64,000 nt of DNA. It comes from Candidatus Nitrosocosmicus arcticus. GTDB taxonomy: Archaea; Thermoproteota; Nitrososphaeria; Nitrososphaerales; Nitrososphaeraceae. The DNA lies in the NCBI RefSeq assembly GCF_007826885.1, contig NZ_ML675584.1:62001-126000 (forward strand), given 5' to 3'. Shown piece by piece: positions 32,414 to 46,455 of the stretch (position 1 is the first letter of the stretch; every line of letters begins with the position of its first letter). The position numbers were made by a program, and so were the translations under genes. Below the pieces are notes generated by a model. It did not search any database. It was not told the origin of the DNA and saw nothing but the letters and a program-made list of their open reading frames with translations.

Positions 32414-34315
32414 TCAAGACCAGTCTATATCCTTTACATGTTCAATTGGATTTCTTTGAGGTGTTTGAATTCCCTTACGATTTAATTTGGTGCCGAAAGA
32501 ATCGACTGTTTTGATCTTTGCATCAAATATTAATCCACACCTTGCTTCGATCTCCGCCAAACCTACTTGAAAAACCTTGAAATCATCTAAATCTAAAGCC
32601 TCTAATTCATCAAGGTTTTGAGTAAGCAGAAAGCCCTTTGCTCTTAATACTTGATTTTCTACATACATTAGTATCTTCCAGAATTCCCTGGGGAGTTTTG
32701 TATTCCTATATATCTTATCGTCTTGGTGAAATACTGGACCACCAAATAAACTAACCCTTAAATTCTCGACGTCTACTTCATCAAAAACTGCATCTTCTAG
32801 CTTTCCCCAAATTCCTCCCTTATTACCTTGGTTAAACTTGTCCATCTGTGGGGATATATTTGTAAAGTAAAATGAATCCTTGTTTGCCTTTTCTGCTTCT
32901 GCTAGGGTTCCCCACACCAGGTCAGCCCTTCGAGCAATGTGACCACGATCCAGTTTATTTGTTCTATACAACTCATCTCCCGCTTGAAATTCAGATGGGA
33001 TTCTTGGATCGTTTATAAAGGGAATACCACTTCGACTTATTTTCTTAATGTTACCGCCGTCAATATTCCAACCAACCCAAAAAGGAAATTTTCTTTCTTT
33101 ATTAAGTACTAGTGAGAAATGCGTATAATCAATTATTTCTGATTCGTTTAAGACATACCTATCTTCTTTGTTTTCCTCGACTAAGCCAGGATTCTCAATG
33201 TGAACAGATAAAAAGTCGGTAGCAAAACCCCGATTAGGCTTAGTTTCCAATAGATTTGGCCCGTCAAGGGTTATCTGGAGTTTTTCAAAAATTGATTTCG
33301 GATAACATGCAATCGCATATTCAGTGGGATTTCCAGATGATTCGCCGGCAAAGTGTAATCCTGCCATAACACCAGATGGTTTACCGTTACTTGATTTGAA
33401 TATCCATACTGAGCCAGAATCTCCGCCCATACTTATCTCACCATTTTCTGGAGGGTTGGTAAGGTCTATCCCAATCTCAAAACCGCCTATTTCTTGTTCT
33501 CCGATCGACCCACCATAATCTATTTTCACAATAGTATTGACTCTTGAAACTACGCCGTGAGTAACTCCAGTTGTTCTACCACTTTTTATGACCTTGTCGC
33601 CTAACTCTGGTTCTCCTATTTTGTCTATTGATATTCCCAAATCAATAACGGCATTGTTAAAGCTCCGATCTTCGATTGTGGTAATTGCACAATCACCAGC
33701 GTGTCCCAAGTGTGATCTTACTAGCTTTCCCATTTTGTTCAAATGAGCGCGGTTATCATCATGAGGACCAGGTTGCACTATATCATCACCAATCACTCCG
33801 TTTGATCCATGAAGTACGTGCCAATTGCTCAGAATATAAGGCGAACCTGATGCTTTGTCATAAACCATACATCCAATTGTACCTGCACTTCCATGGACAT
33901 TTGATATGCTTATGCCAGGTACCATTGGATCCATACGCCTCTTGCGATCACTCACTACTAGTTCAGATACTAACCTAAAATCTGCAGCATACTTTCTCTG
34001 GATTACATCCGTAGGAACCTCTGTTCCATTTAATTTAAAGTATTTTGGAATCAGTGTACTGCCGAGTCCCTTAATGTCTTCTGGCTGGGCTTTCATCTCT
34101 ACAGTGAACTGAATCGATATTTCATCAGTAAGTTTGTCTTCTTTTTGCTTGTAACCAATTCCTACTGATGAGATATTGGGATCCTTTAGAAATTCAGCTC
34201 CTCTAGTCCTGACGAAATCTCTTAATACATTCATTGAGACTACTTGACTATCTTTTGCGCTGGCCTGTTTTTTGATCAAATTTCTAGACTTCGAATTTTT
34301 AATCTTTTTAGCCAT
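32414..34315 (-). CDS. NAL1-like serine protease fused to DNA/RNA non-specific endonuclease
   Basis: A 633-aa fusion. Residues 30-125 form an N-terminal module (VGIGYK and VPTDVI motifs) typical of NAL1-type trypsin-like proteins. Residues about 140-350 are the chymotrypsin-fold protease, with His166 in SNWHVL, Asp208 in GDCA and Ser300 in GGDSGSV, plus the NAL1-like VIKSGRTTGVTHG strand. Residues about 385-620 are a beta-beta-alpha metal nuclease (NucA/NUC1 family), with DRGHIARR (456-463, catalytic His459) and NISPQMDKFNQG (486-497, metal ligand Asn495). No signal peptide is visible; the N-terminus is basic. It is divergent from the M6 protease gene, and both catalytic sites look intact. 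Confidence 0.88.
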   Translation of the reverse strand: MAKKIKNSKSRNLIKKQASAKDSQVVSMNVLRDFVRTRGAEFLKDPNISSVGIGYKQKEDKLTDEISIQFTVEMKAQPEDIKGLGSTLIPKYFKLNGTEVPTDVIQRKYAADFRLVSELVVSDRKRRMDPMVPGISISNVHGSAGTIGCMVYDKASGSPYILSNWHVLHGSNGVIGDDIVQPGPHDDNRAHLNKMGKLVRSHLGHAGDCAITTIEDRSFNNAVIDLGISIDKIGEPELGDKVIKSGRTTGVTHGVVSRVNTIVKIDYGGSIGEQEIGGFEIGIDLTNPPENGEISMGGDSGSVWIFKSSNGKPSGVMAGLHFAGESSGNPTEYAIACYPKSIFEKLQITLDGPNLLETKPNRGFATDFLSVHIENPGLVEENKEDRYVLNESEIIDYTHFSLVLNKERKFPFWVGWNIDGGNIKKISRSGIPFINDPRIPSEFQAGDELYRTNKLDRGHIARRADLVWGTLAEAEKANKDSFYFTNISPQMDKFNQGNKGGIWGKLEDAVFDEVDVENLRVSLFGGPVFHQDDKIYRNTKLPREFWKILMYVENQVLRAKGFLLTQNLDELEALDLDDFKVFQVGLAEIEARCGLIFDAKIKTVDSFGTKLNRKGIQTPQRNPIEHVKDIDWS

Positions 34316-34328
34316 GAAAAAAAGATAA

Positions 34329-34341
34329 TGTCTATATACTT
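34329..34341 (-). promoter_or_regulatory. TATA-like promoter of the protease-nuclease gene
   Basis: AAGTATATAGA, read on the minus strand, lies about 15-27 bases before the ATG at 34315. It is part of the 430-base divergent promoter region shared with the M6 protease. The distance fits a leaderless transcript. Confidence 0.45.
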
Positions 34342-34749
34342 AATCTTTTGTTAATTATTGGGATATTAAAGAAAAATCATGTTCTCAACCAATTCAGAAG
34401 TTACCTCCAGAAGAAGATTTAGATCTAATTAATTATCATTACAGGGGGATATTTCCTAGTTCTCTTCTTGTAATTTTTTTGGAAAATACTTGAAATAGTA
34501 ATAAAGGGGGGGAATGAAACTCCTCCTATTAAACTCTCTGATGTCAAAAATTTTATTGGTGAATTGTTGTGAATGCGTGGGCGTTTCGGCATGTTAATAT
34601 GCTAAAGTACGGTATTAACATCCAATAATCTGATTTCTTGATGATTTCTCAATTAAGAGTTACAACAATATTAAGCACTTGTATAATCGTTATTGATGGA
34701 TGATTCAAATCTATAGAAAATATTAATATCACTTGAAATCAATATCTCT

Positions 34750-36174
34750 ATGAAAAAACAGAAATTTAATGTTCCTCGTACAATAAAACCGCATTCTATT
34801 CATAGTCGATGCATGATGCCTCCGTCGCCTGGGGTAATCGCTTCTCTAAAGAGTGAATTCGATCGCTCTGGAGAAACTGACATAAAAAAATTCTTACGAG
34901 ACGTGGGCTTAGAACCTGGGTATAATCCACTAGGAAAAGACGACCCTGTAAGACCTAACGTTGCAGCAATGGAAAGAGGTATTTTAAAACTTGAAAGAAT
35001 AGATGTTCCGACTTTTAAACCACAGGGGGAAATTAATGCATTAGTTGTTCTTATTGATTTTGAGGATAACGTTGCAAAAACTCCACCTTCTCATTTTGAG
35101 GAATTGTTATTTTCTAAGGATACATATCTGACTGGAAGTCTCCGCGATTACTATGATGAAGTTAGTAATGGTAGAGTAGATATTGTTGGCCAGGTTTCGG
35201 GTTGGCACAGAATGAAGGAAAATTATTCATTTTATGTGGGAAAGGACAGTGGAGGAGATATTGAAGGTTATCCTAATAACGCCAGGCGCATGGTAGAGGA
35301 GGCAGTAGCCATCGCTTTAGACCGGGATTCTAACATACAATGGGATAAGTACGATTTGAATGGGGATAAAACAATTGATGCTTTATTTATTGTCCATGCC
35401 GGTCCTGGGGCAGAAGTTCAACAGACCGAAGAAGGAAGAAAAAAACACATTTGGTCTCATAAATGGATAGTCCAGAACCCACTTAAGGTGACTGACAACA
35501 TTTGGGCCTCAATCTATTTGACAGTCCCTGAGGATGGTCTCCTTGGTGTATATGCGCATGAAGCAGGTCATTTAATTTTTGGCTGGCCCGATTTATATGA
35601 TGCTTGTACCGACCAAAATAGAACGGCTGGTGTTGGTGAATGGTCTCTAATGGCATCAGGAAGTTGGACTAATGGTGGTGTTACTCCATCTTATCCTGAC
35701 GCTTGGTGTAGAATGGTTCAACAATGGCCTGCCATAACCAAAATAAGAGGAATTAAGGAATTGAGTCTAAAACCAATCGAAGAAGTAGATCAAGTGGTTA
35801 TGATCCCAATAAGAGGAAAACTTAAAGAGTATTTCATACTCGAAAATCGGAGAAGAGTAAAATTTGATAAATACCTACCTGGGGATGGGCTGTTGGTTTA
35901 TCATATAGATGAGGGAGCAGAAAACAATTGTGATGAAAATCATTTGGCTGTTGGAGTAGTTCAGGCTGATGGACAACAGGATCTTGAAAGAATAGGGTTA
36001 TTTGGAAATCAAGGAGACGATGGAGATCCATTTCCCGGGACAGGCAGCAGAACAAATCTGGATTCATCTAATTTCCCAAATACTTTAGATTATGGTGGTA
36101 ACAATACTGGGATAAGCTTAAGCAATATAAGATGGGTTGAAAATAGTCTGGATTTTACGGTGAATATGACCTAA
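34750..36174 (+). CDS. M6-family zinc metalloprotease
   Basis: A 474-aa peptidase of the immune-inhibitor-A type (MEROPS M6). The extended zinc motif is YAHEAGHLIFGWPDLYD: His270, His274, catalytic Glu271 and Asp281. A Met-turn follows (SLMASGSWTNGG). The N-terminal 90 residues are a polar, propeptide-like region, and a beta-rich C-terminal domain (GDGLLVYHIDE and GFPNTLDYGG-like strands) follows. No signal peptide is present, although M6 enzymes are normally secreted. It is divergent from the protease-nuclease gene. Confidence 0.9.
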   Translation: MKKQKFNVPRTIKPHSIHSRCMMPPSPGVIASLKSEFDRSGETDIKKFLRDVGLEPGYNPLGKDDPVRPNVAAMERGILKLERIDVPTFKPQGEINALVVLIDFEDNVAKTPPSHFEELLFSKDTYLTGSLRDYYDEVSNGRVDIVGQVSGWHRMKENYSFYVGKDSGGDIEGYPNNARRMVEEAVAIALDRDSNIQWDKYDLNGDKTIDALFIVHAGPGAEVQQTEEGRKKHIWSHKWIVQNPLKVTDNIWASIYLTVPEDGLLGVYAHEAGHLIFGWPDLYDACTDQNRTAGVGEWSLMASGSWTNGGVTPSYPDAWCRMVQQWPAITKIRGIKELSLKPIEEVDQVVMIPIRGKLKEYFILENRRRVKFDKYLPGDGLLVYHIDEGAENNCDENHLAVGVVQADGQQDLERIGLFGNQGDDGDPFPGTGSRTNLDSSNFPNTLDYGGNNTGISLSNIRWVENSLDFTVNMT

Positions 36175-36221
36175 GGTAAGAGCAAGCAAAATAGTCTATT
36201 TCCTGATTCGGTTCAAAAGAG

Positions 36222-36503
36222 TTAGGGCTTGATTCTTGCAGTGTAGGATTGTTGTTTTTCATCACCGATAAATGAAACTAGAACATTCACTTCCTCGCTT
36301 TCAAAATATTTAAGATCATTTTTTGATACTGTTATTTCTATTTCTTGCCCTATCTTATCTTTGACAAAATTAGGCATCTGGTTATAATCTTTGGCTTCGA
36401 GAACAAGTAATCTTACTTTGCCCAACTCTCCGTTTATAGTCTTTCCTTTCACCTTTGCATACACATCACTAGCATTGGGCGCGACACTGATCCCGTAACC
36501 CAT
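36222..36503 (-). CDS. small beta-rich protein in the protease island
   Basis: A 93-aa protein beginning MGYGISVAPNASDV, with about five predicted strands and a conserved-looking VNVLVSFIGDEKQQSYTARI end. I do not recognise it. It sits between the M6 and M14 protease genes, on the M14 strand and 110 bases downstream of it. Size, composition and position suggest a protease partner, such as an inhibitor or chaperone, but this is inference. Confidence 0.6.
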   Translation of the reverse strand: MGYGISVAPNASDVYAKVKGKTINGELGKVRLLVLEAKDYNQMPNFVKDKIGQEIEITVSKNDLKYFESEEVNVLVSFIGDEKQQSYTARIKP

Positions 36504-36612
36504 AAGACCTCTATGATTTACAATAAATTAAACATTGATAGAATTAATTAATTCGATTTACCTATCCGATCATGAATTATATGCACGCGGCAAAGCCTTC
36601 TCAGAAGATACT

Positions 36613-37713
36613 TCACTCTATAGATGAATTGAGCACAATGGAGTCACAAAAAGCTACCAATCCCGAGCATACTTCTACAATGATTTCTTTCATTTCTGAC
36701 CACGGGGGCTGAAAGTCATCCTTTCCAAATTCTAGTGTAAAACTGTAAACCTTATTTTTATCAACATCCAAAAAATGCCTACTAAAAGCATAGTCATCAC
36801 CAGCACCAGAAGTCGGGTATAAACCAAACGATTGCTCAACAGAATACCTTGTACCACGTACGTTCTCTAAAGCGTTTGCAAAGGTAGATGCCAGATCCTT
36901 TACGTAATTGTAATCTGTTAGGGGAATGTACTCTTTATACTCCTTATCATTTTCAATACCTCGAACTTTATCGTACTGTGCATTTCTAAAATTTTGTTTG
37001 GCTTCTAAAACTTGATTCTGGTCAATTCCCCAACAATAATAAATGGCCCCCACTGCACAATGAATATCCATATAATGACCAATTCCCTCAAATTCATCTA
37101 GTAGCCACTTTATGTTTCTTGTTTCTGGTTCAGAAAATACTGCTGATCCCCTATATCTCTGTCTAGGATCACAGGGATCAGCAGATGTTTCCACTCTAGC
37201 ATCCGGAGCAAAACATTCTGTGAAATCCCATAGCAAATCGTAGTTTCTATTCAAATCTACTCCGATACAATCTGGTTCTCCATGACTTTCATCAGGGTTA
37301 CGGTTTCGACGCCACAACACATTGGCTGGGCCACCTTGACTGTATGCTTTACCATCCGGATTTACGTCGGGGACTATAATTATATTAGTTTCCTCAATAA
37401 TCCTTCTAATTTGACTGGATTCAAAATATTGATCTTGGTACCTTAAACCCGTATCCTTTGAATATGCCTCCAATAGATCTGCCGCAAAATAAACACAAAT
37501 ATCAGAACCGCCCCATTCTCTGGCGTGAACGGATCCAGTAAAAAGGATTGACTTATTCTTCCTGTTTGCTTTATTCTTTCCTATAATTAAAGCGTGAATA
37601 GTCCTTCCTTCAATACTCTTGTTTGGAAGTTCAACGATTTGGGAAGTATTGCTATACGTCCTTGATAAAGATGTCAAAGCATCTTCAACCTCATCAACAT
37701 TAAGGTAAGTCAC
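36613..37713 (-). CDS. M14 zinc carboxypeptidase
   Basis: A 366-aa metallocarboxypeptidase of family M14, which removes C-terminal residues. Zinc ligands are His63 and Glu66 in VHAREW and His218 in MDIHC. Arginine clusters WRRNRN and GVDLNRNYD (152-159) bind the substrate carboxylate, and the catalytic Glu lies in FTLEFGKDD near residue 340. Several cysteine pairs (WDFTECFAP, DPCDP, IHCA) resemble secreted carboxypeptidases, yet no signal peptide or propeptide precedes the catalytic domain. The gene for the 121-aa protein ends 8 bases upstream of its start, so the two are almost certainly co-transcribed. Confidence 0.92.
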   Translation of the reverse strand: MTYLNVDEVEDALTSLSRTYSNTSQIVELPNKSIEGRTIHALIIGKNKANRKNKSILFTGSVHAREWGGSDICVYFAADLLEAYSKDTGLRYQDQYFESSQIRRIIEETNIIIVPDVNPDGKAYSQGGPANVLWRRNRNPDESHGEPDCIGVDLNRNYDLLWDFTECFAPDARVETSADPCDPRQRYRGSAVFSEPETRNIKWLLDEFEGIGHYMDIHCAVGAIYYCWGIDQNQVLEAKQNFRNAQYDKVRGIENDKEYKEYIPLTDYNYVKDLASTFANALENVRGTRYSVEQSFGLYPTSGAGDDYAFSRHFLDVDKNKVYSFTLEFGKDDFQPPWSEMKEIIVEVCSGLVAFCDSIVLNSSIE

Positions 37714-37721
37714 TAAGTCAT

Positions 37722-38087
37722 CTACTCCTTGACTCCAAATCCCTTTACCATTGGATTAGGATCAGCATCTTTGGATTTTGCTTTTGAATACCTATTCTCC
37801 TTAGAAATATCATCTTGTTTTTTAACGGCTGACTGCATCAAATCCTCATGAATTTCTATATCCAATAAATTACTTTTACGACTTATCATCGCATTCTTTT
37901 GTTTATCTTTTGTATACGCTTCGATCTCATAAGTTCCATCACCCAACTTTTTTGGCCCGCCACAAGAAGTGTCCAATCTCTCATTAAAAATATAGTCTAT
38001 CAATGCTTTCTTATCCTTGGATCTTATCTTAATCTTCCAAACAGGTTCCATTACTGTAGTAATGTATTTTATCTTATATACTTTCAC
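37722..38087 (-). CDS. small protein co-transcribed with M14 carboxypeptidase
   Basis: A 121-aa protein that ends 8 bases before the carboxypeptidase start. Residues 14-80 (WKIKIRSKDKKALIDYIF, DGTYEIEAYTKDKQ, LLDIEIHED) suggest a beta-alpha-beta-beta ferredoxin-like fold, as seen in M14 and subtilase propeptides. A charged, flexible tail follows, ending in NPMVKGFGVKE. It may be a separately encoded prodomain that folds or inhibits the carboxypeptidase. That is inference from the tight linkage and fold pattern. Confidence 0.7.
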   Translation of the reverse strand: MKVYKIKYITTVMEPVWKIKIRSKDKKALIDYIFNERLDTSCGGPKKLGDGTYEIEAYTKDKQKNAMISRKSNLLDIEIHEDLMQSAVKKQDDISKENRYSKAKSKDADPNPMVKGFGVKE

Positions 38088-38349
38088 GCTTCTTCAGAGT
38101 AATTATTCGGATTAAGATCCTGAAATATTGATTACAAGATTTTGGATGTTCATAAATATCTGGTAACAAATAATCACAGTTTTACTGATTGATGCGCAAT
38201 TGGCGATTAATTACTTGATTGTCTGAATCGGAGGGATATTTTCTAAATCAATAACCAGAGCATATCTTTTATTTGTTTACAAGATCTGTGATTTCACCAT
38301 TGATGAATCTTCTTTACTAGTTCTGAGTGGGCCTCATTTCTCTAATGAG

Positions 38350-38730
38350 TTACGTGGGATCAAATTCTATTATTTTGTCCCCAATCACTAATTTTATGGC
38401 TTCTTTTTGCTTGAATGGGGGAATTACTTTGGCTAAAGGTGACAAATCAAATACTAAATTATCAGTTACTATCCTTTTGCACTTGTCCCCATTATCATCA
38501 TGTGAAAGGTTCAAATGAATACGTGTAGGTTGTAAATCCAAGAATTTATCTGCAACAAGAATAAATTCGTGCGTTTTGCATCCACCAATATAGGAAACTT
38601 TAATTTCAATTTCATTTCCAACTAATTCTATTGACTTTATTGTAAAAGGAGCCTTATTCAATTCTTTTATTTCATCCGAATTTAGTATCATCAACATCTT
38701 TTTTTCTTTGGTTGATATCGGTGGATGCAT
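38350..38730 (-). CDS. conserved GGC-motif beta protein
   Basis: A 126-aa beta-rich protein with VSYIGGCKTHEFILVAD, LNLSHDDNGDKCKRIVTDN and LVFDLSPL blocks. I have seen this pattern (GGC..H.F, a DDNG..C pair, FDLSPL) in small bacterial lipoprotein-like proteins of unknown function; here there is no lipobox or signal peptide. The two cysteines may form a disulfide. Met12 or Met14 could be alternative starts. It is divergent from the serine protease at 39030, sharing a promoter region with repeated TTGTTGATA. Confidence 0.65.
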   Translation of the reverse strand: MHPPISTKEKKMLMILNSDEIKELNKAPFTIKSIELVGNEIEIKVSYIGGCKTHEFILVADKFLDLQPTRIHLNLSHDDNGDKCKRIVTDNLVFDLSPLAKVIPPFKQKEAIKLVIGDKIIEFDPT

Positions 38731-38731
38731 G

Positions 38732-38998
38732 TTGTTGATACTAACTTTATTTTATTAAACATTGTTGATATTTGACTCACTCATTGAGAATTAATTAGCT
38801 GGAGTAAGAACAAGATCGTTTTTGAACAATACTTGTATTAGTTACCTTTAAGATGGTTGAGTGGGCATTTTACTTTGAATGAATCGCCGGGTTCAAATGA
38901 ACTTTGAAAAAAGGTTTCAAATTTGAATTCTCTACAGGATTTTACAGATCATATCTTTTTTCTACGAATAAAAGGTTCAAATCATAATCTATCAACAA
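38732..38998. promoter_or_regulatory. divergent control region with repeated TTGTTGATA 9-mers
   Basis: TTGTTGATA occurs at 38732-38740 and 38762-38770, exactly 30 bases apart, and in inverted form (TATCAACAA) at 38990-38998. The copies lie next to the start of the 126-aa gene and about 30 bases before the serine protease start. A regulator binding both promoters would explain the arrangement. Confidence 0.35.
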
Positions 38999-39029
38999 TC
39001 TTAAATAATATTAATATTATTATTTAAAA

Positions 39030-40085
39030 ATGTCTAATCCTGCCGAAAAAAATGACAATGTAAATAAGGAACTAAAAAAATTTTCACTCTGGGAAATAAA
39101 TAGAGAATTGGCTGATAGAGAGAAAAATATAGCCATTGAGCCACAGTCTGATGGGCCAAGTCGGACAAGTCCGACGGCTAATACTCGTAGTAGCAGAAGA
39201 ATCGGTATTGCTGGATTTAATACCTCGGAGCTTCATGATGCTAAGAAAAGTAGACAAAAAGTAATCTATGGTGTTGATAATAGACAAGACTATTATCAAC
39301 TAGATGAACAATCAGAGTCAAAAATTAAAGAACAGTGTGGTAGTGTTGTTTCTTTATTTAACAATGATGATCTCGTTCCTGTCCAAACAGATGGCGGACA
39401 AAAGTTTAGCCTAGGAACTTCAAAATTTGGTGAGGCTTACGGTCTATGTGAACAGGAAGTATTTTTTAATCAACCAGTGGGTGCATTTTGTTCTGGATTT
39501 TTGGTAGCAGATGATTTGGTAGCGACAGCGGGTCATTGCGTTACGGAAGATGACGTTACTAATGTAAGTTTTGTATTTGGATATCGAATGAATTCTGAAA
39601 ATCAAGCCCAAACTACAATCAGCTCCTCTGAAATATATCATGGTAAAGAGCTTGTTGGCAGGAAGCTTACTGATGATGGAACCGATTGGGCATTGGTGAG
39701 ACTAGACCGGACTGTAGAAAACCACAAGCCATTTAAGATTCGGAGAGATGGAAAAATTAAAGATCAACAACGCGTTTACGTAATTGGCCACCCGTGTGGA
39801 TTGCCTTTAAAGTATGCGGCCGGGTCAAGAGTTAGAAACAACCAAGAAGAATCATACTTCGTAGCAAATTTGGATACTTTTGGTGGAAATTCTGGATCAT
39901 GTGTATTTCATGCCGGTGATGAAACTGATTTGGAAAACGGTATAGTTGAAGGAATTTTGGTAAGAGGTGAAACCGATTTTGATGATATAAATGGATGCAA
40001 GCGATCTAACGTGTGTCCTGATGATAAATGTAGGGGAGAGGATTGCACTCGCACAACTGAATTTGCTCATCTCGTTCCAGAATAG
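39030..40085 (+). CDS. trypsin-like serine protease
   Basis: A 351-aa S1-type (V8/trypsin-like) protease. The triad is His169 in ATAGHC, Asp219 in GTDWALVRL and Ser288 in FGGNSGS. Residues 1-140 are a polar region with a Ser/Thr/Arg stretch near 42-58, and two cysteine-rich ends (GLCEQEVFF before the fold and the CKRSNVCPDDKCRGEDC tail near 330) suggest disulfides. There is again no signal peptide. A long AT-rich promoter stretch precedes the ATG. It is the second trypsin-fold enzyme of the island. Confidence 0.88.
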   Translation: MSNPAEKNDNVNKELKKFSLWEINRELADREKNIAIEPQSDGPSRTSPTANTRSSRRIGIAGFNTSELHDAKKSRQKVIYGVDNRQDYYQLDEQSESKIKEQCGSVVSLFNNDDLVPVQTDGGQKFSLGTSKFGEAYGLCEQEVFFNQPVGAFCSGFLVADDLVATAGHCVTEDDVTNVSFVFGYRMNSENQAQTTISSSEIYHGKELVGRKLTDDGTDWALVRLDRTVENHKPFKIRRDGKIKDQQRVYVIGHPCGLPLKYAAGSRVRNNQEESYFVANLDTFGGNSGSCVFHAGDETDLENGIVEGILVRGETDFDDINGCKRSNVCPDDKCRGEDCTRTTEFAHLVPE

Positions 40086-42645: not shown

Positions 42646-45423
42646 CTATCTCAAGTTACCATTTCCAACATCCAATTTAGTATCAATTTTCAAGGGTTTG
42701 TTGGCCCATTTTGCTATCCATTGTCTTATGATATTAGCACTAACCTCTGCCTTTCTCCTAACAAATCCATCTTTATCGCTCCTCGCGATAGTAATTAATT
42801 CTTCAATTGAGTCGTATGTTCTCTTGTCAGGGAATATATCGAACTTAGCGTCATCATCCGAAAGTGCAGTACAAGCATTCATCTTTATCTTGCGTCTATC
42901 GTCTCTTAACAATTCTTTAAGCCTATTAAAAACTCCTAGATTCATATTTGTCACAATGGGATTAATAGGGTCAGACTTGTATGTCAGAAATTTGCCCAGA
43001 CAAGCTGTAGCTTTTGCCCTCACAAAATACTCCTTTGATTGATCAGTATTTTCTAGAAAAAAATTCACAACTTCCAAGTAAATATCTTGATCTTTTTCTT
43101 TCGATAGTTCCTTTAGTCCTTCTAATGCACCTGTTGCCAAATTGCTCTGAAATGTATTAGTGGTATCGACCAATTTTTTTAATACGGAAATAATTCCTTC
43201 TTTTTCTTTTTTATTGAGTAATCCTTTACAACTTTTACCTATGGCAGTCGCTGCAACAGACTTTACGAAAATACTATCTGTATTTGACGTCTGAATAAAG
43301 TTTTCAAGCAATTCGATTGAATTAGATCTTTCAAATATTCCAATATTCTTTACAATCGCTTTTTTTATTTCCGGTCGGAAATTGTCAAAGGATGCTCTGT
43401 TTTTAAGAATTGATATTAATGCCTGATATGCTCTATCGGATTTTTCGTAATTATTCTTGTCATAAAAAGAACCAATAGCATTTGCAGCCTCTACTGATAC
43501 TCCATAGAATATGTCGCCCGTTATCCTATCTTGTAATGCTGTAATTATTTCTTCTGAATACAGATTCTTGAGTAAACGTACCGCGTTAACCCGTTCTATG
43601 ACTGTATCTCCATTCTTCATTTGATTGACGAGTAATCTCTTTAGTTGAAAGTCTTCAGTTTCATTTAGGATTTTAATAGAATTTATGTTTTTGAGAACTT
43701 TAAAATCTGGATCGATTGAGATTATACCTAATGACAAGTTCCTATCGATAAAAACAGTACTTTCTGAAGTATATGTATCCACATCCATTAAATGCAATAT
43801 CTGTCGTTTCTTTCCAGTACCATCTAAGAGGTTAATTTTGATCTCTAACTGGAATTTATAGTGAATAGACTTTTCAGCACCGTTCAAATTATCGTTACCT
43901 TGTCTGATTTTTACAGTTAAATTTTTGGTGGAATTTCCATCAGCTTTTGAGTCAATATCTTCTAGGATAAAATCTATTTGCAAGTCGGGATGTCCTTCTC
44001 TATAGATCCATTGATCAAAGAAAGAATGCATTTCAATGCCGGAAGTTTCCTCCAAAATTCTCAACAAGTCAAGGGATTCAGCGGATTTGTGTTGATATTG
44101 TGTTAAATACGTTTTTAACGACTTTCTGAAATTAAATTCTCCTAGATAGGAACGAAGCATGTGAAGAATAAATCCTGCCTTCTCGTACGCATGAGCATCA
44201 AATAATTCGTCAGGATGTTTATAGAATTTGGTAACTATTGGTCTATGATATTGGTCCTTGGCTTCTTCAAAATATATATCTGTATTTTTAATCAGGTTGT
44301 AATGGAATTCATCCATTCCTCTTGTTCTTTCCCAATATAATAACTCGCAATAAGTAGCAAACCCTTCGTTTAACCAAATGTGCGACCAGTCTTTACATGT
44401 TACCATATCACCGAACCATTGATGCGCAAGCTCGTGGACAACCAAAAAAATGTCATTTCGATAGTCCATGGATGTTATTTTATCATGTAGGACGTTTCTT
44501 GTTAACGTGGTACAACTACTATTTTCCATGCCGCCAAATTCAAAATTATCAACTGCGCTCTGAGAATATTTTTGAAAAGGAAATTTAGTATTAAAATATT
44601 CTTCAAAGAAACCTATCATGTGGGGAGTTTCTGCAAAGGTCAGCATTGCATCATCCTTATTGATTTCTTCTGGCCAGTAGTAGTAAAGAGGAATATTATT
44701 GTAGTTAGATTCAACCACTGAAAACCTGCCAATTACAACTGAAACAAGATAGGAAGGGAGTGGATTTTTTTCTATAAATTTCCATACTGTTATCTCATGT
44801 TCAGTTAATTTGGATGCCAGTATTCCATTTGAGATAACCATAAACTCACGAGGGCAGATTACTTCAATGTCTAAAGTAAATTTCATTTGCGGGCTATCTA
44901 CGCACGGAAACCAGTAGGGTGATTCAGTAGCTTGACCTTGCGTCCATGTTTGATAAGCGGGAATTTGTCTATCTTGACTATTCTTTGTAATAAAATGAAA
45001 ACCATTTCTAGGTGAAGTGAACCCACTGCTACTTTCGATTTCATTATAACCGGTTGAATATGAGATGTTGATATCAACAGTACTTCCTCTTCTAAATAAT
45101 TCTGAAAATTCTATGATCAATTTTTGATCATTAGTACATCGAAAATTTGAAATATCTATTGACAAAGATTCGATCTCATTTATCCTTATTTCTGAAATAT
45201 CTAAACTAATATGTGAAATATCTTGAAAAGCTCTAACCCTTAACTGTTGGTTACAATCTACCAGAGTCTGTTTAACAAAGTCCGGTTGGATCCTTAATGA
45301 CATGTGCTCTATTGTAAAGGAAAATATAGGAACTTCGTGCATCTCGCTACCGGGAAATGCAAAATTCTTTTTGGATGGCTCTCTACTTAGATTTTTATTA
45401 TGATTTTCATTGAACTGTTTCAT
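42646..45423 (-). CDS. M1-family aminopeptidase with C-terminal repeat domain
   Basis: A zinc aminopeptidase of family M1, 925 aa from the ATG at 45423 (13 residues shorter than the longest frame). The exopeptidase motif GGMEN and the zinc site HELAHQWFGDMV with WLNEGFATY (His, His and Glu ligands) are intact, about 300-365 residues from the N-terminus. After the catalytic domains (to about residue 600) comes a helical repeat domain resembling HEAT repeats (AANAIGSFYD, ATAIGKSCKG, ATACLGKFL, ACTALSDDD, each with a repeated Ala-Leu/Ile pattern). It is divergent from the Png1-like gene across 270 bases. Confidence 0.9.
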   Translation of the reverse strand: MKQFNENHNKNLSREPSKKNFAFPGSEMHEVPIFSFTIEHMSLRIQPDFVKQTLVDCNQQLRVRAFQDISHISLDISEIRINEIESLSIDISNFRCTNDQKLIIEFSELFRRGSTVDINISYSTGYNEIESSSGFTSPRNGFHFITKNSQDRQIPAYQTWTQGQATESPYWFPCVDSPQMKFTLDIEVICPREFMVISNGILASKLTEHEITVWKFIEKNPLPSYLVSVVIGRFSVVESNYNNIPLYYYWPEEINKDDAMLTFAETPHMIGFFEEYFNTKFPFQKYSQSAVDNFEFGGMENSSCTTLTRNVLHDKITSMDYRNDIFLVVHELAHQWFGDMVTCKDWSHIWLNEGFATYCELLYWERTRGMDEFHYNLIKNTDIYFEEAKDQYHRPIVTKFYKHPDELFDAHAYEKAGFILHMLRSYLGEFNFRKSLKTYLTQYQHKSAESLDLLRILEETSGIEMHSFFDQWIYREGHPDLQIDFILEDIDSKADGNSTKNLTVKIRQGNDNLNGAEKSIHYKFQLEIKINLLDGTGKKRQILHLMDVDTYTSESTVFIDRNLSLGIISIDPDFKVLKNINSIKILNETEDFQLKRLLVNQMKNGDTVIERVNAVRLLKNLYSEEIITALQDRITGDIFYGVSVEAANAIGSFYDKNNYEKSDRAYQALISILKNRASFDNFRPEIKKAIVKNIGIFERSNSIELLENFIQTSNTDSIFVKSVAATAIGKSCKGLLNKKEKEGIISVLKKLVDTTNTFQSNLATGALEGLKELSKEKDQDIYLEVVNFFLENTDQSKEYFVRAKATACLGKFLTYKSDPINPIVTNMNLGVFNRLKELLRDDRRKIKMNACTALSDDDAKFDIFPDKRTYDSIEELITIARSDKDGFVRRKAEVSANIIRQWIAKWANKPLKIDTKLDVGNGNLR

Positions 45424-45696
45424 GTTTTTTACTTTAATACTCACTATGACGTCATAGATCAAACATAAGTTTATTGAAAATAGAATCGAATCTATTGTAT
45501 TACATCACATGCTATGATTGCTAAAGTTTTATCACCATTTCAAGATTCATTACTGATTATGAAGTTGCCTAACACAATTATTAACAATGTTCAATCTTAT
45601 GCAAATATTTTAATGAATTCAATATTTGCTAGATATTGAAAGACACTGCATTAATTAACTAATGTTTATACTTCAGAAACCATTAGTATCTACCGC

Positions 45697-46455
45697 GTGC
45701 TAAATCTTCCTGATTTAACAAGAAATAGGCTTTCTTTTCCCCTTACTAAGGATATTCTTTTTTTATATAAACAGGTAACCAAACAATATCTAGACAAAAC
45801 TCTCCTTAAATCTGTAAATGATCAAGTGCCAATAAAGATAAGAAAGGAATTTGATAAAGATTTAAAGCAATATTCTGATTATCTGATTCCTACAAAATTA
45901 CTACTCGATTGGTTTAAAAATGACTTTATGAAATGGATGAGCAAGACGCCATTATGTCCAACCTGTGGGAAACCTATGATCCTTAGATTTGTTCAAGGAA
46001 ACTCATGGATAGTAAGAAGTGTAGAGTACTATAATTGTCCCCATTGCAATTTTTCACAAAATTTCCCAAGATACGGTGAAATAGAAAATATATCGTTTCA
46101 CAGGATAGGTAGATGTACTGAATGGTCATTTCTTTTTGGAGCAATATTGAATTCATTAGGCATAAGTACAAGAATTGTTCATGATTTCCTCGATCATTGC
46201 TGGAATGAATCACTGATCGATGGACAATGGATACATGTGGATTCCACTCTTGAATATCCTATTTCTTTAAATCATCCTAGTTATTATGAAAAAAATTGGA
46301 ATAAACAGTATCTCTATGTTTTAGCATTTTCGGATAACAAAGTGGTGGATGTTACGATGAACTATACTAATATGTGGACTGCTATAATTGAACGTAGAAA
46401 AAAACTAAAGTTAAGTACTATTCCTAGTATCCAGGATTATTATGGCAAATTATAG
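45697..46455 (+). CDS. Png1-like peptide:N-glycanase (transglutaminase fold)
   Basis: A 252-aa protein that closely matches the catalytic core of eukaryotic peptide:N-glycanase (Png1/NGLY1), which strips N-glycans from misfolded glycoproteins. A zinc module (Cys87, Cys90, Cys114, Cys117) precedes NFPRYGE, then GRCTEWSF with nucleophile Cys140, DFLDHCWNE with His167 and HVDSTLE with Asp182. The 27-residue Cys-His spacing equals that of yeast Png1 (C191/H218), as I recall it. The downstream YEKNWNKQYLYVLAF and VVDVTMNY also match. The GTG start lies about 26 bases after TGTTTATAC. No signal peptide; likely cytosolic. Activity is not proven. Confidence 0.85.
   Translation: MLNLPDLTRNRLSFPLTKDILFLYKQVTKQYLDKTLLKSVNDQVPIKIRKEFDKDLKQYSDYLIPTKLLLDWFKNDFMKWMSKTPLCPTCGKPMILRFVQGNSWIVRSVEYYNCPHCNFSQNFPRYGEIENISFHRIGRCTEWSFLFGAILNSLGISTRIVHDFLDHCWNESLIDGQWIHVDSTLEYPISLNHPSYYEKNWNKQYLYVLAFSDNKVVDVTMNYTNMWTAIIERRKKLKLSTIPSIQDYYGKL

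What the first reader, a model, noticed from the sequence alone, without database searches (positions are those of the whole stretch)
45697..46455. Close homologue of eukaryotic peptide:N-glycanase in an archaeon
The four-cysteine zinc module, FPRY, GRCTEW, DHCWNE and HVDSTLE occur in the same order as in Png1, and the Cys-His spacing is 27 residues as in the yeast enzyme. Archaea N-glycosylate surface proteins, so a cytosolic or salvage deglycosylase is plausible. Most transglutaminase-fold archaeal proteins are far more distant.
Basis: partly seen in the sequence, partly recalled or inferred. Interest (0 to 1): 0.8.

Follow-up and report, generated by a model that had tools for sequence, protein, structure and literature searches.

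The report
Png1-type deglycosylase in soil ammonia-oxidising archaea
A soil ammonia-oxidising archaeon carries an apparently intact gene for a close cousin of the enzyme that eukaryotic cells use to strip sugar chains from discarded proteins, and the same gene is found in many other soil archaea of this group but not in their sampled marine-type relatives; its activity has not been tested.

Summary
Window 45697-46455(+) encodes a 252-aa protein with a GTG start. Its best solved relatives are mouse and yeast peptide:N-glycanase (E 1e-28 and 2e-24; family profile 3e-41). The four-Cys zinc module, the C140/H167/D182 triad and four further Png1 residues (R159, W169, E171, W178) are invariant in the family alignment. 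The second CXXC lies exactly 26 residues before the catalytic Cys, as in mouse and yeast. A confident model (pLDDT 88) matches PNGase structures first.

In trees it lies far from generic archaeal transglutaminases (100/99). It forms one clade of terrestrial ammonia-oxidising archaea next to eukaryotic Png1 (90/82; not decisive). A pattern-dependent scan of about 85,000 prokaryotic species found the zinc-containing form only there.

The loop after the catalytic Asp is longer than in Png1 and lacks its Cys-Glu, so glycan specificity may differ.

Likely function: a cytosolic thiol amidase that releases N-glycans from glycopeptides. The genome also has AglB, GH38 and GH130, but a salvage pathway is only suggested. 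It is not a generic transglutaminase; activity is unproven.

The parts
45697..46455 (+). Png1-type (PNGase-like) transglutaminase-fold gene, 252 aa, GTG start, no evident signal peptide or membrane helix
45748..45852 (+). N-terminal helices (residues 18-52; invariant K25, Q30, P45), aligned by the family profile to mouse PNGase from residue 30 on
45955..45966 (+). first zinc CXXC (C87, C90), invariant in the family alignment
46036..46047 (+). second zinc CXXC (C114, C117), exactly 26 residues before the catalytic Cys in all zinc-containing archaeal members, mouse and yeast
   Evidence: the equivalent yeast Cys165 is essential for activity (PMC2866665)
46063..46074 (+). FPRY motif
46108..46125 (+). 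GRCTEW with catalytic Cys140
46171..46173 (+). Arg159, equivalent to a conserved Png1 arginine thought to matter for catalysis
   Evidence: PMC3502110
46192..46209 (+). DHCWNE with catalytic His167, Trp169 and Glu171
46228..46230 (+). Trp178, conserved Png1 tryptophan
46234..46254 (+). HVDSTLE with catalytic Asp182
46240..46278 (+). loop after the catalytic Asp (DSTLEYPISLNHP): three residues longer than in Png1 and without its Cys-Glu; the main difference from Png1
42646..45462 (-). divergently transcribed M1-family aminopeptidase; the pair is conserved only in one Nitrosocosmicus subclade, so a functional link is inferred

Best explanation
The gene encodes an archaeal Png1-type peptide:N-glycanase core enzyme: a cytosolic thiol amidase with a transglutaminase fold and a structural zinc module. 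Proposed mechanism: Cys140, activated by His167 and Asp182, attacks the amide carbonyl of a glycosylated asparagine, forms an acyl-enzyme and releases the glycan as a glycosylamine (which breaks down to sugar plus ammonia); hydrolysis leaves Asp in the peptide. The most likely substrates are imported or internally generated glycopeptides and unfolded glycoproteins, which peptidases and mannosidases then degrade. Shown here: fold (predicted), family affinity, all catalytic and zinc residues, distribution, and presence of AglB, GH38 and GH130 genes. Inferred: activity, cytosolic location, substrates and pathway.
For: The only strong PDB sequence matches are mouse and yeast PNGase. The AlphaFold model (pLDDT 87.9, pTM 0.87) matches mouse PNGase at E 9e-17 (TM 0.75-0.77) and yeast PNGase at 3e-14; Rad4/XPC follows only at 2e-6 and transglutaminase 2 at 3e-3. 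Triad, four zinc Cys and the four further Png1 residues are invariant over 19 members down to 41% identity, as expected of a catalytically active family. In trees it is well separated from generic transglutaminases (100/99) and placed next to Png1 (90/82). The genome has one AglB, one GH38 alpha-mannosidase nearest to alpha-mannosidases such as 7ufr and Ams1 and one GH130. A divergent M1 aminopeptidase lies next to the gene.
Against: No activity data exist. The loop after the catalytic Asp differs from Png1: three extra residues, and Cys-Glu replaced by Thr-Leu/Phe. Archaeal N-glycans need not begin with the chitobiose that Png1 binds. AglB acts outside the cell (own knowledge), so a cytosolic enzyme needs imported or returned substrate. 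Members in the second family (g38) lack GH38 and GH130. The association with GH38 and GH130 is not significant once phylogeny is controlled. Gene neighbourhood is conserved only locally.
Confidence: 0.62

Rival explanations
1. A Png1-fold thiol hydrolase with another substrate: an amidase, deamidase or isopeptidase acting on a different asparagine- or glutamine-linked group, not on N-glycans.
For: The loop after the catalytic Asp is rebuilt. The gene is absent from many AglB-bearing relatives. The fold hosts many chemistries.
Against: All residues known to matter in Png1 outside that loop, including the zinc module and the conserved Trp, Arg and Glu, are invariant.
Confidence: 0.25
2. A true PNGase, but used for quality control or recycling of the cell's own AglB-made glycoproteins or glycocalyx rather than for scavenging food (a variant of the best explanation that differs in role, not in chemistry).
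For: One AglB is present. Nitrosocosmicus may have a glycocalyx instead of an S-layer (PMC11559005).
Against: No ERAD-like return route is known in archaea (own knowledge). Many relatives with AglB lack the gene. The protein has no evident export signal.
Confidence: 0.3
3. On origin: the archaeal genes descend from a eukaryotic Png1 acquired by a soil archaeon and then spread and lost repeatedly.
For: Distribution is limited to two families of mostly terrestrial ammonia oxidisers and is patchy, needing 8 changes on an RpoB tree of one family. The zinc module was shared only with eukaryotes in the scan.
Against: The archaeal clade is deep (to about 41% identity) and lies beside, not inside, mouse plus yeast; joining it to either one alone is rejected (p-AU 0.03). 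Zinc-less archaeal relatives give the wider family an archaeal base, and the zinc-less thaumarchaeal L113 shares the archaeal loop. Only two eukaryotic sequences could be included, so this is not settled.
Confidence: 0.35
4. A generic transglutaminase-like protease or a non-functional relic.
For: The Pfam hit is the broad Transglut_core family. Pseudogenes exist in some relatives.
Against: Generic archaeal transglutaminases split off at 100/99. The window copy is intact and its active site is invariant across the family.
Confidence: 0.04

Closest known systems
Eukaryotic cytosolic peptide:N-glycanase Png1/NGLY1 (core domain; PDB 2f4m mouse, 1x3w and 3esw yeast)
   Same: Transglutaminase fold, Cys-His-Asp triad with 27-residue Cys-His spacing, two CXXC zinc pairs with the second 26 residues before the Cys, FPRY and GRCxEW, conserved R/W/E/W, N-terminal helix region; like yeast Png1 it has no PUB or PAW domain
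   Different: His-Asp spacing 15 instead of 17; three-residue longer loop after the Asp without Cys-Glu; no Rad23, ubiquitin or ERAD context; activity untested
Zinc-less soluble archaeal PNGase-like proteins (about 170-190 aa, Thermoproteota families f47 and f57; L060-L065)
   Same: N-terminal helix, Cys-His spacing 27, C-terminal DVT..Y motif; their loop 'DPSEK..DDPEMYERNW' resembles that of Png1
   Different: No zinc module; GKCxEF/GRCGEF instead of GRCxEW; about 33% identity over the core
Rad4/XPC transglutaminase-like domain
   Same: Same fold superfamily; next-best structural match after PNGase
   Different: Inactive DNA-repair protein (Anantharaman 2001, cited in PMC10318531); far larger; E 2e-6 against 9e-17 for PNGase
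PNGase F and PNGase A type bacterial and acidic PNGases
   Same: Same reaction proposed
   Different: Described as very different from the cytosolic enzymes (PMC3502110); no sequence match here

Membership tests
Png1/NGLY1 cytosolic PNGase core | Transglutaminase-fold Cys-His-Asp triad in GRCxEW ... DHxW ... HxD context | tested here: met
   C140, H167, D182 invariant
Png1/NGLY1 cytosolic PNGase core | Two CXXC pairs forming the zinc module needed for activity | tested here: met
   C87/C90 and C114/C117 invariant; second pair 26 residues before the Cys as in mouse and yeast; essentiality in yeast from PMC2866665. Zinc binding itself not tested
Png1/NGLY1 cytosolic PNGase core | Additional conserved Trp, Trp, Arg, Glu reported as possibly essential | tested here: met
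   W169, W178, R159, E171 invariant; residues named in PMC3502110
Png1/NGLY1 cytosolic PNGase core | Fold matches PNGase better than other transglutaminase-fold proteins | tested here: met
   (predicted model)
Png1/NGLY1 cytosolic PNGase core | Phylogenetic grouping with eukaryotic Png1 to the exclusion of all other archaeal relatives | tested here: inconclusive
   Favoured 90/82 with an outgroup; the alternative is not rejected, p-AU 0.234. Exclusion from generic transglutaminases is firm, 100/99
Png1/NGLY1 cytosolic PNGase core | Loop after the catalytic Asp as in mouse and yeast (D-x-C-E, short loop; seen in two sequences, not an established criterion) | tested here: not met
   the reason it is called a variant
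Png1/NGLY1 cytosolic PNGase core | Deglycosylation of denatured N-glycoproteins | not testable with these tools
   needs a biochemical assay
Generic archaeal transglutaminase-like protease | Falls inside generic PF01841 proteins of the phylum | tested here: not met
   14 generic sequences split off at 100/99
Rad4/XPC | Nearest sequence and fold relatives are Rad4/XPC | tested here: not met
   Pfam Rad4 below its cut-off (24.1 against 27 bits); Foldseek rank 5 and below

The most novel reading that the evidence does not exclude
A true archaeal PNGase that opens a cytosolic N-glycan and glycopeptide salvage route (PNGase, then GH38 alpha-mannosidase, then GH130, plus aminopeptidases) in soil ammonia oxidisers. 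This would resemble the eukaryotic free-oligosaccharide pathway and could help explain the unexplained ammonia-independent growth reported for Ca. Nitrosocosmicus arcticus. With it, the zinc-containing Png1 core would have arisen in, or been shared with, archaea rather than being a eukaryotic invention.
Probability: 0.15. Interest if true: 0.8.

Novelty: new variant of a known kind. Interest (0 to 1): 0.55.

Why it matters
Cytosolic PNGase is known as a eukaryotic enzyme tied to ER-associated degradation and to a human disease (NGLY1 deficiency). A close relative with a complete active site in archaea that lack an ER would show that the enzyme core is older than that system, or was transferred across the domain boundary, and would give a small natural version of the core to study. 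It also offers a testable lead on what soil ammonia oxidisers may scavenge from dead biomass. I found no description of it in the open-access papers searched.

Tried and rejected
Viral or mobile origin: no relatives in viral contigs, phage records or plasmids. Contamination: rejected, because the gene recurs in dozens of genomes of the same two families, including single-contig genomes. Generic transglutaminase: rejected. The 27-residue spacing as proof of Png1 affinity: rejected. GH38/GH130 co-occurrence as proof of a pathway: raw Fisher p about 0.002 in 35 genomes, but phylogenetically independent pairs give no significance; one clade (G001, G004, G008, G010) lacks all three. GH20 hexosaminidase as a further pathway member: absent. 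Export signal: none evident by inspection (no predictor available). Operon logic: neighbours differ between clades. The intergenic region shared with the M1 gene was aligned but not interpreted further. Wider eukaryotic sampling was not possible: only mouse and yeast Png1 are in the solved-structure set; Asgard genomes could not be addressed.

Full report
Observation. The ORF at 45697-46455(+) is real, 252 aa, with a GTG start that is the only possible start upstream of the conserved N-terminus in several relatives. The only strong matches among solved structures are mouse PNGase (E 1.1e-28) and yeast Png1 (E 1.6e-24); a profile of 19 archaeal members raises this to 3e-41 and 5e-38 and extends the match into the N-terminal helix. 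Pfam and NCBIfam give only the broad Transglut_core above cut-off, so ordinary annotation would call it 'transglutaminase-like'.

Where it comes from. The assembly (22 contigs, 2.64 Mb, 98% complete) agrees with Ca. Nitrosocosmicus arcticus Kfb as described in PMC6657660 (22 scaffolds, 2.65 Mb, 98%); this identification is inferred. Relatives (43-78% identity over most of the protein) occur in 24 of 61 sampled genomes, all in the same family. In a sample of 250 genomes of the class, matches occur in 19 genomes of that family and in 7 genomes of one genus (g38) of a second family, and nowhere else. A scan of 84,980 species with patterns from both eukaryotic and archaeal sequences returned 41 loci: all Thaumarchaeota, many of them soil assemblies by title, except one weak zinc-less protein from a Nealsonbacteria genome. 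That scan depends on two short patterns and may miss divergent members. In a 349-genome sample of the phylum the next best matches are zinc-less proteins at E 1e-21 and weaker. Nothing was found in viral, phage or plasmid collections.

Anatomy. Over 19 members (41-78% identity to the window protein) the four zinc cysteines C87, C90, C114, C117 and the triad C140, H167, D182 are invariant. So are R159, W169, E171 and W178, which correspond to the residues that PMC3502110 lists as conserved and possibly essential. In yeast, changing one cysteine of the second CXXC abolishes activity (PMC2866665). The second CXXC lies 26 residues before the catalytic Cys in every zinc-containing archaeal protein and in mouse and yeast. 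The main difference from Png1 is the loop after the catalytic Asp: Png1 has D-x-C-E and a short loop, the archaeal proteins mostly D-[S/P]-T-[L/F]-x-[Y/F]-P with three more residues, and His-Asp spacing is mostly 15 instead of 17. From memory, not tested, this region is near the sugar in yeast PNGase, so glycan preference may differ. The AlphaFold model (pLDDT 87.9, pTM 0.87) matches PNGase structures first (E 9e-17, TM 0.77), then Rad4/XPC (2e-6), then transglutaminases.

Phylogeny. In a tree of the full sequences the ammonia-oxidiser proteins form one clade (93/96) and eukaryotic Png1 attaches next to it, away from zinc-less archaeal proteins (100/99). With the transglutaminase core alone the same split stands at 96/99, so it is not driven by the zinc columns. 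These trees are unrooted, so generic archaeal transglutaminases were added as an outgroup. The PNGase-like group is then separated from them at 100/99, and inside it Png1 joins the ammonia-oxidiser clade plus L113 at 90/82, but Png1 with the zinc-less group is not rejected (p-AU 0.234). Placing the archaeal clade with yeast alone or mouse alone is rejected (p-AU 0.03). Only two eukaryotic sequences were available, so transfer from some other eukaryotic lineage cannot be excluded. L113, a thaumarchaeal protein, has the archaeal loop and GRCGEW but no zinc module: either a loss, or a stage before the zinc module was gained.

Context. The gene is divergent from an M1 aminopeptidase (42646-45462). 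This pair is kept in one Nitrosocosmicus subclade, including three copies of the pair on separate contigs of one MAG. The g38-type genomes and two others instead have a convergent MFS transporter downstream. So there is no family-wide operon. The genome has one AglB, but AglB is present in 102 of 120 genomes of the class, most of which lack this gene. The genome also has a GH38 alpha-mannosidase, whose nearest solved relatives are alpha-mannosidases such as 7ufr and Ams1, and a GH130 enzyme, but no GH20. In 35 genomes of the family, intact PNGase genes go with GH38 (11 of 16 against 3 of 19) and GH130 (14 of 16 against 6 of 19), Fisher p about 0.002 each. On an RpoB tree, however, this rests on few events: one clade lacks all three, with PNGase relics still visible in three of its four genomes. 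Independent pairs are not significant.

Most likely function. A Png1-type thiol amidase that removes N-glycans from peptides or unfolded proteins in the cytosol. The catalytic steps are inferred from Png1. Salvage of imported glycopeptides is my preferred role because the protein has no evident export signal, lies beside an aminopeptidase, and the organism is reported to grow at low temperature without ammonia oxidation, probably on recycled biomass, from a substrate that could not be identified (PMC6657660). Turnover of the cell's own glycoproteins is nearly as plausible; Nitrosocosmicus may have a glycocalyx rather than an S-layer (PMC11559005). A changed substrate (25%) remains open because of the loop.

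Novelty. Archaeal transglutaminase homologues in general have been known since 1999 (Makarova et al., cited in PMC3502110 and others). I found no paper in the library that describes a zinc-containing Png1-type protein in archaea, although subscription journals are largely absent. I rate it a new variant of a known kind.

Noticed in passing
window 32414-40085: Cluster of hydrolases upstream of the pair: a DNA/RNA non-specific endonuclease with a long protease-like N-terminal half, an M6 peptidase, an M14 carboxypeptidase and a trypsin-like protease. In L108 the M1-PNGase pair lies next to homologues of window 17.3-20.4 kb, so about 20-42 kb looks like a variable island.
   Followed up: partly
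L113:2481-3053: Thaumarchaeal (TA_20) Png1-like protein with GRCGEWAN and the archaeal loop but no zinc module; a possible transitional or reduced form.
   Followed up: partly
L060-L065: Zinc-less soluble PNGase-like proteins of 167-191 aa in other Thermoproteota families, with a Png1-like loop (DPSEKRIDDPEMYERNW); apparently an uncharacterised family of their own.
   Followed up: partly
L023, L022, L025 (genomes G008, G001, G004): PNGase pseudogenes or remnants in one Nitrosocosmicus clade that also lacks GH38 and GH130.
   Followed up: yes
L009, L012, L014: Members of a second Nitrosocosmicus subclade carry a low-complexity Ser/Asn/Asp-rich insert of roughly 50-60 residues between the N-terminal helices and the WFK helix.
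   Followed up: no
L118 (G000 contig C2, 196937-197686): GH38 alpha-mannosidase in the window's genome; present in 10 of 14 sampled genomes of the genus.
   Followed up: partly
L116:5761-6342: Nealsonbacteria protein with GRCGEW and DHVW motifs, zinc-less, very long branch.
   Followed up: no
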